From positions 1 to 13,541 of the forward strand of contig JAISQQ010000085.1 of the NCBI GenBank assembly GCA_031274075.1: a DNA stretch of 13,541 nucleotides, given 5' to 3'. This document shows, piece after piece, positions 4,256 through 13,370 of this stretch (its first letter is position 1; each line of letters starts with the position of its first letter). A program made the position numbers and the translations under genes. This DNA is from Accumulibacter sp. GTDB lineage: Bacteria > Pseudomonadota > Gammaproteobacteria > Burkholderiales > Rhodocyclaceae. The notes under the pieces are model-generated. The model was not told where the DNA came from and made no database searches. It saw nothing but the letters and a program-made list of their open reading frames with translations.

Positions 4256-6528
4256 GCCGCGTCTCCTTCCCCGAATCCTTCCCCGAATCCTTCCCCGAAT
4301 CCTTCTCCATCCGCTTCCCCGAAACGCGCTCCCAAGCCCTCCCCGAGATCTTCCCCGTGGCCCACCTCACGGCTTGCCACGATCTCAAGCGCTTCCGCGG
4401 CCTTTCCAGGCTTTCCGCCTTCCCACCCCTCCGCTGGCGCTTCCTCCCGATCCGGCCCAGCCGGGCCTTCCCACCATTCATCGCCCTCGACGTAGCGCCG
4501 CCGCATCCCCTCGGCCATCTCGCGCAGATCCTTCGGCATCGCCTCGTCGGGATCGGCCACCGGCAGCGGCATGCGGACTTTCCACAATTTGCCGCCCTCG
4601 ATCAAGGCGAAGCACTGGCCCTTGGGCAAGGCGACGACGTGCGCCGGCTCGATCAGCGGCACGCTGGCCGGGGTGAGGCGGTCCTGGGTATTGGAAGTGA
4701 AGGCCGACGCGCCGCGCGGATCGGAACTGTCGGTCGCCCCGCTCATCAAGGTGGCGGCGTAGACCTCGACCTTGGGCAACTGCTTCGTGAGCAATTCGGC
4801 GGTCGCCGTCTCGCGCACGCGCAGCATGAAGAGGTTGTTGAAATTGCCGACCACCTGCCCCGCCTTGGCGCGATTGCCGATCTTCGCCTCGATGTCGGAC
4901 AAGGTCTGCGTATAGGCCGTGACCTGCACTCCGGCGCCGCCGCCTTTGTTCACCAGCGGGATGAACTCGTCGCCCATCAGTTCGGCGAACTCGTCGGCGT
5001 GCAGATCGATCGGCGCCCTGGCCGGGGCCGCCCCCGGCAGGCCGTCGTCGATGCCGAACTTGTAGAGGTGCCCGGCGACCGACACCAGGTCGGCGAACAT
5101 CGAATTGCCCACGGCGGCCGCGACTTCCGCGTCCGACAAGGCGTCGAGCCCGACATAGACGATGCCGCGCTTGCGGAGAACCTGCATCCAGTCGAAGATC
5201 GGGCGCGGATCCTTCAAGTCCGAATAATTCGGCGCCAGAAGCTGCGCGATCTTGCCGGTGGTGAGTTTTTCCAGGAGCGGCAGCAGGGAAGCGACGATCT
5301 TGTCGAAATAGGTGCGGTCGTAGCGTACCGCGCTTCTCAGGCCGTCGAGCACCGGATCATAGATCCTGACCTGTGACAGATACTGCTCCAGCGCCACGAC
5401 GCGCTTCTCGCGTCCGGTCATGTGGCGCGGGATGTTCTTGTCGTTCAGCCTCGATTCGAGCTGGACGACGACTTCCCAGGCCTTCGGCTCCGTCCGGGCG
5501 AAGAAGTGCTGCGCGTACTCGATGAACAGCGCGTCGATGTTGATGACGTGCCGCTGGATCAGCAGGTAGTCCGGGCGCTGTCCCAGTTCCACCAATGCCC
5601 GCGCGATGATGTTCACGAAACGCAAGGCAAATTCGCGGAACGCGGCGCTGTTGCCTTCGCCCGACAACTGCCCGGCGATGCGGGAGGCGACTTCGGAGAT
5701 GCGCCCGAAGCGGCCCACGGCGTTGTAGCGCGCCGAAATATCGGGCCAGCCGAGGTGAAAGACATAGAACTCGCCCTCGCGCCCGGCGCGCTTCGCCTCG
5801 ACGTACATGCGCTTCAATAAATCCGCATCGCCCTTCGGGTCGAAGACGATGACGACCTCATGCTCGCCGTCGGCGTTCCGGCGCCGGATGTCCTGGGTAA
5901 TGAAGAGTTCGGCGAGGCGCGTCTTGCCGACGCGCGTCGTGCCCAGCACCAGGGTATGCCCGACGCGCTCGGAGAGCGGCAGGCTGACGTCGACTTCCCG
6001 CGGCTCGATGCCGTGCAGGCGCGGCAGGCCGCCGACCGGCGGGAGCGGCCGCACCGGATTCAGGGGACTGTCCCAGGCGAGGACCCCGGCGAGCCGGGAG
6101 AGCGGGAACGGCGCGAACTCCAGGCGTTCTTCGATCCTTCGGGCCAGCCGGTAAAGACACGCCGGTTCCACATAGCGGCGAAACTCCGGGCGCCAGGTCT
6201 GCATCAGGCGATGCGTGTGCTTTTGTTCCCACAAAAAACCCTTGCCGACGAACAGGCGCTGCCGGCTGACCGGCACCTCGCGGCTCGTCATCGCGTAGCG
6301 CGGCAGGCGGCGGATGTGGCGGCGATAGCGCAGGACGATCCAGGCGTCGCGCAGGCGGAGCGCGCCGAAGACGAGAAACGCCAGCGCGCCGCAAACGCCC
6401 AGCCGCGGACTCAGCGCCAGCGCCCACGGCGCCGCCAGGCACAAAAACGCGGCGGCGAGAGACACCGCCACGGTATAGAGTTCCACCGCCGGGCGCAGCA
6501 GGACTTCGACGGCTTGGGATTGTGCCAT
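4252..6528 (-). CDS. traD: Conjugative coupling factor TraD, SXT/TOL subfamily (TIGR03743)
   Basis: Type IV coupling protein: a membrane-anchored ATPase that recruits the relaxase-DNA complex and delivers it to the secretion channel. The 758-residue product has two N-terminal membrane segments (about 17-35 and 43-58). It has a Walker A GTTRVGKT at 196-203, VIVFDPKGD at 226-234, and a Walker B IDLHADEF at 507-514 with acidic D512/E513. A polar motif AYTQTLSD follows at 538-545. The start at 6528 is chosen because the membrane anchor follows directly; the frame stays open upstream only through repeat DNA that does not resemble TraD. No Shine-Dalgarno sequence precedes this ATG, only pyrimidine-rich repeat DNA, which is odd for this operon. 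The C-terminus is acidic and Gly-rich, ending in GEGF repeats encoded by a 12-bp tandem repeat. The stop overlaps the next start (GTGA). Confidence 0.96.
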   Translation of the reverse strand: MAQSQAVEVLLRPAVELYTVAVSLAAAFLCLAAPWALALSPRLGVCGALAFLVFGALRLRDAWIVLRYRRHIRRLPRYAMTSREVPVSRQRLFVGKGFLWEQKHTHRLMQTWRPEFRRYVEPACLYRLARRIEERLEFAPFPLSRLAGVLAWDSPLNPVRPLPPVGGLPRLHGIEPREVDVSLPLSERVGHTLVLGTTRVGKTRLAELFITQDIRRRNADGEHEVVIVFDPKGDADLLKRMYVEAKRAGREGEFYVFHLGWPDISARYNAVGRFGRISEVASRIAGQLSGEGNSAAFREFALRFVNIIARALVELGQRPDYLLIQRHVINIDALFIEYAQHFFARTEPKAWEVVVQLESRLNDKNIPRHMTGREKRVVALEQYLSQVRIYDPVLDGLRSAVRYDRTYFDKIVASLLPLLEKLTTGKIAQLLAPNYSDLKDPRPIFDWMQVLRKRGIVYVGLDALSDAEVAAAVGNSMFADLVSVAGHLYKFGIDDGLPGAAPARAPIDLHADEFAELMGDEFIPLVNKGGGAGVQVTAYTQTLSDIEAKIGNRAKAGQVVGNFNNLFMLRVRETATAELLTKQLPKVEVYAATLMSGATDSSDPRGASAFTSNTQDRLTPASVPLIEPAHVVALPKGQCFALIEGGKLWKVRMPLPVADPDEAMPKDLREMAEGMRRRYVEGDEWWEGPAGPDREEAPAEGWEGGKPGKAAEALEIVASREVGHGEDLGEGLGARFGEADGEGFGEGFGEGFGEGDAA
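4265..4308 (-). repeat. 12-bp tandem repeat at the 3' end of traD
   Basis: Three perfect copies of CCTTCCCCGAAT (4265-4276, 4277-4288, 4289-4300, plus-strand reading) and a partial fourth. They encode repeated Gly-Glu-Gly-Phe at residues about 742-754 of TraD. Because the unit is 12 bases, gain or loss of copies keeps the frame, so tail length may vary between relatives. The AAGGAG ribosome-binding site of the next gene lies at the edge of the repeat. Confidence 0.85.
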
Positions 6529-6533
6529 GGTGT

Positions 6534-6666
6534 GTTCAGAGGACAGAGGACAGAAGACAGAAGACAGTAAAGTTACCGGGCGCGAAGCGCCCGCATATTG
6601 ACTGTCCTCTGTCCTCTGTCTTCTGTCCTCTGAACCCTGTCCTCTGAACCCTGTCCTCTGACCCTT
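6534..6666. repeat. Heptanucleotide-repeat inverted repeat with nested hairpin, inserted before traD
   Basis: Two 35-base arms (6534-6568 and 6601-6635), built from 7-base units of the CTGTCCT / CTGTCTT type, are inverted complements with 32 of 35 matches. The 32-base spacer holds a perfect 7-bp hairpin (6577-6593, CGGGCGC, loop GAA). Further heptads, such as CTGAACC and CTGTCCT, continue to about 6666 on one side only. In the minus-strand RNA two of the three mismatches become G-U pairs, so 34 of 35 positions could pair. The element supplies the last 30 residues or so of the PFL_4695-family protein and ends 5 bases before the traD ATG. I recall similar heptad runs, often mistranslated as QRTEDR-type or SVLCSLSS-type peptides, in other proteobacterial genomes. 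That memory is unverified. Confidence 0.85.
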
Positions 6667-7199
6667 GTCGCGGTGATCAATACCGGGTAATGGCGGACGC
6701 CCAGGCGCTGGGCGAGGTCGTCGCCGGAGACGGGCGAGAGCGTGAGTCCCGGCGCGAGGCGGCGCAGATCGGCGAGCGCCGCGGGGGTGTCCACCTGGAC
6801 CACCAGCCCGAACGCGCCCAGCTCGCGCAGCGCCGGCGCCATCTGCAGGAGCCAGGCGCGCGAACGTTCGTCGTCGCCGATGAGGAACAGGGGCGTCAAG
6901 CCGGGCGCGTGGATGACGCGGTCCGGTTCGAGGCCCGGCGAGAGCCGTTCCGAGCGCACCGGCAGCAGCGCCGCCTCGGCGTCGGCGGGAGCGCCGATCC
7001 GGGGCGCCGGGCGGGCGGGGGACGTTACGGGCGTTTCGGCCGGTTCCGCGTCCTGGGGATTCAGGGCCGGGTAGTACGGCCGCGCCGAAACGCCGCCGCG
7101 ATCCTCGACGACGATCAGTTCGGTGGCGATGGCCGCGGCGGACAGCAGGCCCAGGGCGAGCGTGGCCGGAAAACGAAGATTCAGGGCGGGAGGCTTCAT
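6573..7199 (-). CDS. Conjugative element protein, PFL_4695 family (TIGR03765), with repeat-derived C-terminus
   Basis: Exported protein of G-type conjugative systems, role unknown. A signal sequence occupies about residues 1-26 (LNLRFPATLALGLLSAAAIA), then a proline-rich linker, then the conserved family core: LPVRSERLSPGL at 79-90, PLFLIGDDERSRAWL at 103-117, and DLAQRLGVRHYPVLITAT at 161-178. Family members usually end soon after this YPVLI motif. Here the frame runs on through the heptad repeat, adding about 30 highly charged residues (RGQGSEDRVQRTEDRGQR and so on) before a TAA inside the hairpin loop. This tail is almost certainly foreign. The start overlaps the stop of the transglycosylase gene (ATGA). 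Core intact, so probably functional unless the tail disturbs folding. Confidence 0.9.
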   Translation of the reverse strand: MKPPALNLRFPATLALGLLSAAAIATELIVVEDRGGVSARPYYPALNPQDAEPAETPVTSPARPAPRIGAPADAEAALLPVRSERLSPGLEPDRVIHAPGLTPLFLIGDDERSRAWLLQMAPALRELGAFGLVVQVDTPAALADLRRLAPGLTLSPVSGDDLAQRLGVRHYPVLITATRVRGQGSEDRVQRTEDRGQRTVNMRALRAR

Positions 7200-7771
7200 G
7201 GCGTGGCAATCCCAAGGGCAGAAAGGGAAGAAAGGGAAGTGTCCGCGCCCAAGACGCGGACGAGATGGCGGCTGACGTGATCGCGGTAGCGCGCCGCAAT
7301 CTCGCCGCCCGCCGGACGGTGATAGCGGCCGATGGCGGCCAGCCAGTCTTCGCCGGGGACGTACTGTTCCTTGAGGATTTCGGCGGCGATCGCCAGGTTG
7401 CGGTAGGGGTCCAGAAGCTCGCAGGGCTCGGTGTAGCGTTGCGCGTGATAGCCGAGGTTGACCTGGGCGAGACCCACGTCGATCTGTTTTGCCGTGGTCC
7501 GGCCCAGCGCCCGGCGCACTCCCGCGCAGGCTTCGGCGCGCGTGGCGTAGCGTTCGGGCTGGCCGGCGACGTTGAGCGTCCAAGGCCAGGGGATCAGGCG
7601 GCCGCGCCGCGGCAGGCCGCTCTCTTGCAGGGCGACCGCGTAGAGCACCGGCGACGGGATGCCGGCCTGCCGCGCGGCGAGCTGGTAGGCCGGCGGCGGG
7701 ACTTCCCGGGCGTGCGCGGAAAACGCCGCCAGCCCCAGGAAGGCGAAGCGGGCGAGACGGCGGCGCATCAT
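7196..7771 (-). CDS. Conjugation-associated lytic transglycosylase (SLT domain)
   Basis: Periplasmic enzyme that would cleave the glycan strands of peptidoglycan so that the mating channel can cross the wall. The 191-residue product has a signal peptide (MMRRRLARFAFLGLAAFSAHA, about 1-21) and an SLT-type catalytic domain from about 25 to 150. The likely catalytic glutamate is E50 in YAVALQESG (44-52). Supporting motifs are VGLAQVNLGYHAQRY (99-113), DPYRNLAIAAEIL (121-133) and AIGRYHRP (146-153), all typical of transglycosylases in conjugation loci. Two adjacent ATGs are possible; the first, at 7771, gives an ATGA overlap with the previous gene and is chosen, the second would start at 7768. 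The stop again overlaps the next start. Confidence 0.93.
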   Translation of the reverse strand: MMRRRLARFAFLGLAAFSAHAREVPPPAYQLAARQAGIPSPVLYAVALQESGLPRRGRLIPWPWTLNVAGQPERYATRAEACAGVRRALGRTTAKQIDVGLAQVNLGYHAQRYTEPCELLDPYRNLAIAAEILKEQYVPGEDWLAAIGRYHRPAGGEIAARYRDHVSRHLVRVLGADTSLSSLSALGIATP

Positions 7772-10143: not shown

Positions 10144-10264
10144 GGAAGACTCCTTGGATAAAGGAAAGAAAAGAAAAAAGAGAGAGAGAGAGAGAGAGAG
10201 AGACAAAAAAAAAAGAGGAAGAACCCCCCGGCGGCCCGAAGGCCGCCGCGCGGGCGGGGCCCAA
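10144..10264 (-). promoter_or_regulatory. Spacer with hairpin, A10 run, (AG)12 tract and ribosome-binding leader
   Basis: Reading along the minus strand after the upstream stop: a CGGCGGCC stem with TTCG loop (10229-10248), a pyrimidine stretch including T10 (10205-10214), then (CT)12 (10179-10202), then AAGGAG before the ATG. The hairpin copy is identical to the one after the helicase gene, but its T-run is about 15 bases away, so termination may be weaker. The transcript leader would be almost pure pyrimidine. Confidence 0.7.
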
Positions 10265-13188: not shown

Positions 13189-13370
13189 GGCAATACTCCA
13201 GAGAAAGAAGAGAAAGAGGAAAAAGAAGAGAAAGAAAAAACAGAAAGAAAAGAGGCCGCCTCCTCCCCGCAGGGCGAAGACCGGCCCCGGGGTGGGAAGA
13301 GAAAGAGAGAAAAAGGAAAGAAAGAGAGAGAGAGAAAAAAAAAAAACGGCGCCGGGCCGCAGGCTGGGGA
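13189..13370 (-). promoter_or_regulatory. Long purine/pyrimidine-biased spacer before the helicase gene
   Basis: A 182-base gap in which the plus strand is mostly purine and the minus-strand transcript mostly pyrimidine. Reading along the minus strand it holds a small 4-bp hairpin followed by T12 (13335-13359, a possible weak terminator), (CT)6 at 13323-13334, a GC-rich middle near 13255-13300, more C/T-rich DNA, and GGAG before the helicase ATG. No clear promoter was found. Confidence 0.65.

What the first reader, a model, noticed from the sequence alone, without database searches (positions are those of the whole stretch)
6534..6666. Heptanucleotide-repeat inverted element inserted at the PFL_4695/traD junction
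Seen: 35-base arms made of 7-base units, 32/35 inverted identity, nested 7-bp hairpin in the spacer, and extra heptads on one side. In RNA 34 of 35 positions could pair. Two neighbouring copies of an ordinary tandem repeat would be direct, not inverted, so this looks like an organised element (a MITE- or REP-like insertion or a folded-back duplication). It breaks the otherwise gapless packing of an essential conjugation operon. If such elements recur in the host genome with the same nested hairpin, they would form a little-described repeat family.
Basis: partly seen in the sequence, partly recalled or inferred. Interest (0 to 1): 0.72.

Follow-up and report, generated by a model that had tools for sequence, protein, structure and literature searches.

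The report
Heptad-armed hairpin repeat at gene ends
A short hairpin flanked by inverted runs of a seven-letter DNA word was inserted between two conjugation genes, and it belongs to a repeat present in hundreds of copies in this bacterium's genome, often right behind the end of a gene.

Summary
The inverted heptad element at 6534-6667 is real and well above chance. It is one copy of a large dispersed family: in the host draft genome the core motif has 247 matches (reversed control 0). Heptad arrays flank the core, never in outward order in the part examined.

The insertion is derived: 15 of 15 related PFL_4695/traD junctions lack it. In the window it replaced the last codons and stop of PFL_4695.

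Copies often sit right behind genes. Where the stop lies before the element, 36 of 50 are within 30 nt (random points 100 of 568). One copy lies in frame inside mutM.

It fits no named family well. No target duplication shows in 79 elements. No Y1 transposase was found in the host draft, so REP/RAYT is disfavoured. The two arms of an element are no more alike than arms of different elements, so a folded-back duplication is not supported. In 55 copies with exact flanks the hairpin loop is TTC in 46 and its reverse complement GAA in 7, which suggests flipping.

Some relatives carry similar heptads around other hairpins. The closest published precedent is the inverted GGGAATC arrays of Xanthomonas. 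Spread by template switching is my favoured, unproven mechanism.

The parts
6537..6564 (+). left heptad arm: CAGAGGA, CAGAGGA, CAGAAGA, CAGAAGA
6565..6604 (.). core, CAG to CTG, 40 nt here (41 nt in 73 of 81 copies with a clear anchor)
6577..6593 (.). 7-bp GC-rich stem CGGGCGC/GCGCCCG with loop GAA on the + strand, where the core reads in consensus orientation; the commonest loop in that orientation is TTC
6605..6632 (-). right heptad arm; on the - strand, from the outer end: CAGAGGA, CAGAAGA, CAGAGGA, CAGAGGA
6633..6667 (-). five more heptads on one side only, CAGGGTT type alternating with CAGAGGA; the outermost is degenerate
6573..7583 (-). ORF of the PFL_4695-family ICE protein (TIGR03765; start codon uncertain). 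After ..YPVLITAT the native end is replaced by 30 residues encoded by the element, which supplies the stop codon
4252..6529 (-). traD (TIGR03754, type IV coupling protein); 7 nt separate its ATG from the first heptad

Best explanation
The element is one copy of a high-copy, dispersed, non-coding repeat: a GC-rich hairpin core with two inverted arms, each a tandem run of CAG-N4 heptads. Shown here: its core motif has about 250 matches in the host draft; this copy was inserted into a formerly tight PFL_4695/traD junction and overwrote the end of PFL_4695; copies are often just behind stop codons; no target duplication is visible; arms vary freely while the core stays nearly constant; the hairpin loop occurs in both orientations. 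Inferred: copies spread when a replication fork switches template, entering a donor element at one heptad and leaving at another, with short CAG/CTG matches and the self-complementary core helping the switch. Slippage and exchange then change number and order of heptads. Sites behind stop codons survive because they harm genes least. In the operon the long RNA stem probably acts as an RNase III or stability site between the two messages. I put the identity as a dispersed inserted repeat at about 0.95, the template-switch mechanism at about 0.35 and the RNA effect at about 0.3; the confidence given is for the whole statement.
For: Copy number: core 113+134 matches at up to 3 mismatches, reversed control 0; heptad 17-mer 568+549 against control 48+60. 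Order: of 78 heptad groups in 306.9 kb 39 are +-, none is -+. Insertion: 15 of 15 junction loci lack the element; the copy at L222 8458-8561 is absent from G518 (flanks 93% and 88% identical) and G533; the copy at L215 is absent from paralogues L047 and L226 of the same genome. No duplication: 79 of 98 elements tested, observed equals permuted. Arms: left/right similarity 0.251 against 0.247 permuted, 466 of 1000 at or above (57 of 81 clearly anchored copies; 0.244 against 0.243 for 60 of 98); 132 distinct arms among 177. Loop: TTC 46, GAA 7, others 2, of 55 copies with exact flanks. Array length before the start codon of two paralogous genes: 5 against 14 heptads (L033, L219). 3'-end position. 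No Y1_Tnp match in the host draft.
Against: No insertion was caught in the act; the junctions compared are 7% or more diverged, so lost target DNA may partly be later change. A constant core also fits a protein that recognises it, and its gene could lie in the missing part of an 88.7% complete draft. Neighbouring heptads are identical only slightly more often than chance (0.278 against 0.238), so slippage is not dominant. Copies with identical cores share arms only weakly (51 of 500 permutations reach the observed value). A CAG/CTG dyad at the target is clear at one locus only (G518 side of L222); G052 has none at the window junction. 74 of 156 classified sides face gene starts and 11 of 60 elements with both sides classified lie between two starts, so gene ends are not the only sites.
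Confidence: 0.6

Rival explanations
1. A MITE moved in trans by an unrecognised transposase or nuclease: the heptads are its terminal inverted repeats, and target duplications are too short or too decayed to see.
For: Short, inverted ends, high copy number, empty sites. A rare core plus its heptads (84 nt at 97.6%) is shared by L020 and L045 while most of the flanks is not, so whole copies do spread. Transposase_31 (PF04754) genes occur in the host, 4 of 5 places with heptads close by.
Against: No direct repeat above the permuted level at 79 borders. Arms run from 0 to 12 heptads. Similar heptads flank other cores in other genomes. The contigs read were chosen for heptads, so closeness to any gene is expected to be high.
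Confidence: 0.25
2. A REP/REPIN-type element moved by a Y1 (RAYT) transposase that recognises the hairpin.
For: GC-rich hairpin, inverted doublet layout, occasional ordered tandem clusters (L080; L045). Y1_Tnp matches occur in G518, G146 and G111.
Against: No Y1_Tnp match in G000, which has by far the most copies among the genomes searched with the core pattern, nor in G527 and G521. All six are drafts.
Confidence: 0.12
3. A selected regulatory element, for example an RNA stem processed by RNase III or a transcription stop placed behind genes.
For: Position behind genes, very stable fold, conserved core stem.
Against: Arms do not co-vary; orthologous sites are empty in relatives; one copy lies in frame inside mutM. 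The conserved stem is partly a product of how copies were selected.
Confidence: 0.15
4. A folded-back duplication of a local heptad array, unrelated to copies elsewhere.
For: The two arms are nearly complementary.
Against: Arms of one element are no more alike than arms of different elements; about 250 places share one core motif.
Confidence: 0.02

Closest known systems
GGGAATC heptamer arrays of Xanthomonas campestris and X. axonopodis (PMC4692102; passages and sections 10 and 16 read)
   Same: 7-nt tandem arrays of variable length, four units commonest; 186 and 183 arrays per genome; 70 and 75 inverted pairs; mostly intergenic and nearer to the 5' neighbouring ORF; function unknown.
   Different: G-rich unit shown to form G-quadruplexes; CAGARGA lacks such G runs. 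The sections read describe no shared hairpin core between the arms. Two such pairs matched here in G483 have spacers of 19 and 14 nt without an obvious GC hairpin.
REPINs / REP elements with RAYT transposases (PMC3116915; passages read)
   Same: Inverted doublets forming hairpins, high copy number, extragenic, sometimes in ordered tandem clusters.
   Different: No Y1 transposase match in the host draft; arms are heptad arrays of variable length, not two fixed REPs; no compensatory pattern between arms.
Bacterial MITEs such as Correia/NEMIS and RUP (PMC2229807; passages read)
   Same: Under 200 bp, inverted ends, repeated; some affect mRNA of neighbouring genes.
   Different: No target duplication detected, no TA ends in the consensus flanks, GC-rich core, ends not of fixed length.
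Rickettsia palindromic elements (PMC2229807; passages read; in-frame insertion into genes is recalled)
   Same: 105-146 bp with a long stem-loop; here too one in-frame insertion in a protein gene.
   Different: No heptad arrays known to me; here copies are often behind genes.
TAACTGA repeats of Beggiatoaceae (PMC4679880, outline and abstract) and heptanucleotide elements of Geobacter metallireducens (PMC2700814, passages)
   Same: Dispersed seven-letter repeats at many sites.
   Different: Other units, described as direct tandem repeats; most TAACTGA repeats lie just before start codons.

Membership tests
MITE | short element with inverted ends in many copies | tested here: met
MITE | target-site duplication | tested here: not met
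   79 elements: mean border direct repeat 2.90 against 2.88 permuted; 6 nt or more in 1 against 1.7 permuted
MITE | ends shared with a full transposon in the same genome | not tested
   no transposon with heptad ends was seen among the 14 largest repeat groups of 511.8 kb; 84% of the genome was not read
REP/REPIN with RAYT | Y1 transposase gene in the genome | tested here: not met
   0 in G000 while 5 of 14 control genomes ring; draft 88.7% complete; matches in 3 of 6 genomes with heptad-armed hairpins
REP/REPIN with RAYT | inverted doublet forming a hairpin | tested here: met
REP/REPIN with RAYT | compensatory changes on the two sides of the hairpin | tested here: not met
   arms do not co-vary; two compensated stem pairs in 58 distinct cores
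Xanthomonas-type heptamer arrays | 7-nt tandem units, modal four, often as inverted pairs | tested here: met
   mode four: 37 left and 32 right arms of 81 clearly anchored copies; 38 and 38 of 98; pairs
Xanthomonas-type heptamer arrays | GGGAATC unit / G tracts | tested here: not met
   units mostly CAGAGGA and CAGAAGA; GGGANTC pair pattern 0 in G000
Rickettsia palindromic element | in-frame insertion into protein genes | tested here: inconclusive
   one case, mutM of L014 against G052; other copies are often at gene ends
Rfam RNA families | match to a curated family at gathering score | tested here: not met
   0 matches in the window

The most novel reading that the evidence does not exclude
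The heptads are not inherited ends but are rebuilt on both 3' ends of a hairpin each time it is copied, by template switching or a repeat-adding polymerase. CAGARGA heptads would then be portable caps able to mobilise any GC hairpin without a dedicated transposase. This would explain independent left and right arms, a constant core, and similar heptads around unrelated hairpins in other genera. The shared core and heptads of L020 and L045 count against rebuilding at every step.
Probability: 0.12. Interest if true: 0.85.

Novelty: new variant of a known kind. Interest (0 to 1): 0.52.

Why it matters
Inverted heptamer arrays have been noted in bacteria without an explanation of how they arise. 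A large family with a constant core, measurable arm variation and empty sites makes that question testable. It also shows a small repeat rewriting gene ends, and in one case a protein loop, including on an integrative conjugative element.

Tried and rejected
Folded-back duplication: rejected by the arm comparison. Plain tandem repeat: rejected, because the two arrays point inwards and never outwards in the groups seen. Plasmid or phage origin: no match to the element in 72,556 plasmid or 50,697 phage records (low-complexity filter on), and no exact match of a 30-nt core pattern in viral contigs. Rfam: no family. Transposase_31 (PF04754) genes as mobiliser: five places in 511.8 kb, four with heptads or an element close to the gene (L033, L047, L215, L219; none in the stretch of L226 printed). 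I treat this as weak, because the contigs were chosen for heptads. A first crude gene-context count was replaced. The mafft junction alignments were poor and were read by eye. In one search two pairs (L032 482-578, L037 1228-1324) have 55-nt spacers only because a heptad escaped the pattern.

Corrected on re-check: the window copy was matched on the wrong strand by the loose pattern, so loop counts (TTC 72, GAA 13 of 98) were redone with exact flanks (46 and 7 of 55), and core length and arm counts with clearly anchored copies (81 of 98; 17 dropped). The heptad count of L219 is 14, not 13.

Literature: searches listed no paper whose title or abstract describes this family; the library lacks most subscription papers. 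One search lists Coxiella typing papers containing part of the heptad string; they were not read. One genome-contig scan with an exact 30-nt core pattern found two MAGs, Accumulibacter sp. Pcl387_bin123 and Zoogloeaceae bacterium Pcl387_bin2; the window's own genome may be left out there.

Full report
WHAT IS THERE. Between the PFL_4695-family ICE gene (TIGR03765, 128 bits) and traD (TIGR03754, 1083 bits), both on the minus strand, lies an element of 131 bp plus a few end bases. Arms of CAG-N4 heptads point inwards around a 40-nt core, whose 7-bp GC stem has a three-base loop. Five further heptads extend one side. It folds to -81 kcal/mol, z -10.6, and its 34 of 38 arm matches exceed 10 of 10 shuffles (24-25). 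No Rfam family matches.

IT IS A FAMILY. In the host draft genome (G000, 3.18 Mb, 474 contigs, 88.7% complete) the core motif TACCGGGCGC-NNN-GCGCCCGCAAATATTACTG has 247 matches at up to 3 mismatches, reversed control 0. A heptad-spacer-heptad pattern has 152 matches per strand in G000 (its reverse complement is itself, and some elements match more than once), control 0, and none in 368 other genomes of the class. In 306.9 kb 78 heptad groups were found: 39 are +-, 19 + only, 17 - only, 3 other, none -+. These contigs were chosen because they carry heptads, so their density is not the genome's. In 511.8 kb I collected 98 copies at up to 5 core mismatches. In the 81 with a clear anchor the core is 41 nt in 73, and four heptads is the commonest arm (37 left, 32 right).

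DISTRIBUTION. In 101 genomes of the family, own included, only the own genome has the core at up to 3 mismatches. In 28 of the genus 3 do: own 216 matches with this longer pattern, G527 10, G518 1. BLAST finds many more places in G518; the two of them read in full, in L138 and L266, have a stem one base pair shorter. A scan of the named genome collection with an exact 30-nt core pattern found two MAGs, Accumulibacter sp. Pcl387_bin123 and Zoogloeaceae bacterium Pcl387_bin2 (the own genome may be left out there). Flanks printed show that G527 is the former or a twin of it, so the window's genus holds a genome that its submitters called Accumulibacter. A passage of PMC12887300 names a Pcl387 MAG as from a lower termite. 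Similar heptads flank different hairpins at one locus in G521, two in genus g61 (G111, G146) and one in the Zoogloeaceae MAG. G024 and G055 have heptad arrays mostly without such a core.

INSERTION. Fifteen related PFL_4695/traD junctions, one per genome (L095-L109), were compared. All 15 lack the element: 25-44 nt lie between the aligned gene parts where 137-155 would be expected with it. Their PFL_4695 genes end in ITATGIEQ or a close variant, then stop. In the window the frame runs ITAT and then 30 residues encoded by the element, which supplies the stop. Other empty sites: L222 8458-8561 against G518 and G533; L215 against two paralogues in the same genome (about 53 nt replaced); L029 (12 nt in G052 at the place of 305) and L028 (65 nt in G052 at the place of 104). 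At L222 the G518 sequence has a native dyad ATCAG-TC-CTGAT at the spot, and the element appears to sit between its halves; I see this clearly only once, and G052 has no such dyad at the window junction. In 79 of 98 elements tested no direct repeat marks the borders.

POSITION. Of 196 element sides 156 could be classified: 82 face a gene's end, 74 a gene's start, so there is no strong bias in orientation. For the 82, the stop codon lies a median of 2 nt from the border; in 32 it lies inside or beyond the border, in 36 within 30 nt, in 14 further away. Of those with the stop before the border, 36 of 50 are within 30 nt, against 100 of 568 random points behind stops (Fisher p 2.6e-15). Of 60 elements with both sides classified, 17 lie between two gene ends, 32 between an end and a start, and 11 between two starts. 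The gene calls are simple frame calls, not curated. One copy lies in frame inside a formamidopyrimidine-DNA glycosylase gene (mutM) of L014: the frame stays open through a net 45 residues that G052 lacks, and all three Pfam domains are found.

ARMS, CORE AND LOOP. The heptads are mostly CAGAGGA and CAGAAGA with a minority of CAGGGAT-like units. Left and right arms of the same element are as alike as those of different elements (0.251 against 0.247, 57 copies). Of 177 arms with two or more heptads 132 are distinct, while the commonest core occurs 21 times. L020 and L045 share a rare core and its heptads, 84 nt at 97.6%, while most of the flanks is not shared, so whole copies do spread. In 55 copies with exact flanks the loop is TTC in 46, its reverse complement GAA in 7, GGA and TCT in 1 each, and no one-step variant of TTC; this suggests that the hairpin has flipped. 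At up to 3 mismatches the numbers are TTC 71 and GAA 12 of 87. The stem changes less than linker or loop, but copies were found by their stem, so that contrast is partly built in.

MECHANISM. Inverted, unequal, independent arms, a nearly constant self-complementary core, loop flipping, absence of target duplications and target loss fit replication template switching between heptads better than a cut-and-paste enzyme. This is inference. Y1_Tnp has no match in G000, G527 and G521 but matches in G518, G146 and G111, so REP-type movement is disfavoured, not excluded. A role of the RNA stem in separating the PFL_4695 and traD messages is plausible from the fold alone and untested.

NOVELTY. Inverted pairs of heptamer arrays are in print for Xanthomonas, function unknown (PMC4692102). 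What I did not find, in the listings, is a heptad array family with a conserved hairpin core, independent arms, and similar heptads around different cores in different genera.

Noticed in passing
L014 9724-9834: An element copy lies in frame inside mutM and adds a net 45 residues that G052 lacks, with the frame kept open.
   Followed up: partly
L010 828-1194 and other contigs: The host genome holds other small palindromic repeats, for example a GTAGGGCGGGAAAGC...CCCGCC type and CGTCATTCCGGCGCAAGCCGGAATCCAG; one linked group has 52 members in 511.8 kb.
   Followed up: no
L033, L047, L215, L219, L226: Copies of a Transposase_31 (PF04754) gene; the L047 copy was scanned. In four of five places heptads or an element lie close to the gene, with 5 against 14 heptads before the start codon of two paralogues.
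   Followed up: partly
L084 986-2042: In G024 inverted heptad arrays flank a stretch of about 0.9 kb that looks to me like a small toxin-antitoxin gene pair (not scanned); possibly a cargo-carrying version.
   Followed up: no
L045 810-1274: Three element copies in tandem with core starts 184 bp apart.
   Followed up: no
window 7214-7239, 10179-10203, 13200-13335: Purine-rich tracts at several places of this ICE, some near gene junctions.
   Followed up: no
window 4264-4323: A 12-bp tandem repeat at the 3' end of traD encodes a GEGF-type tail.
   Followed up: no
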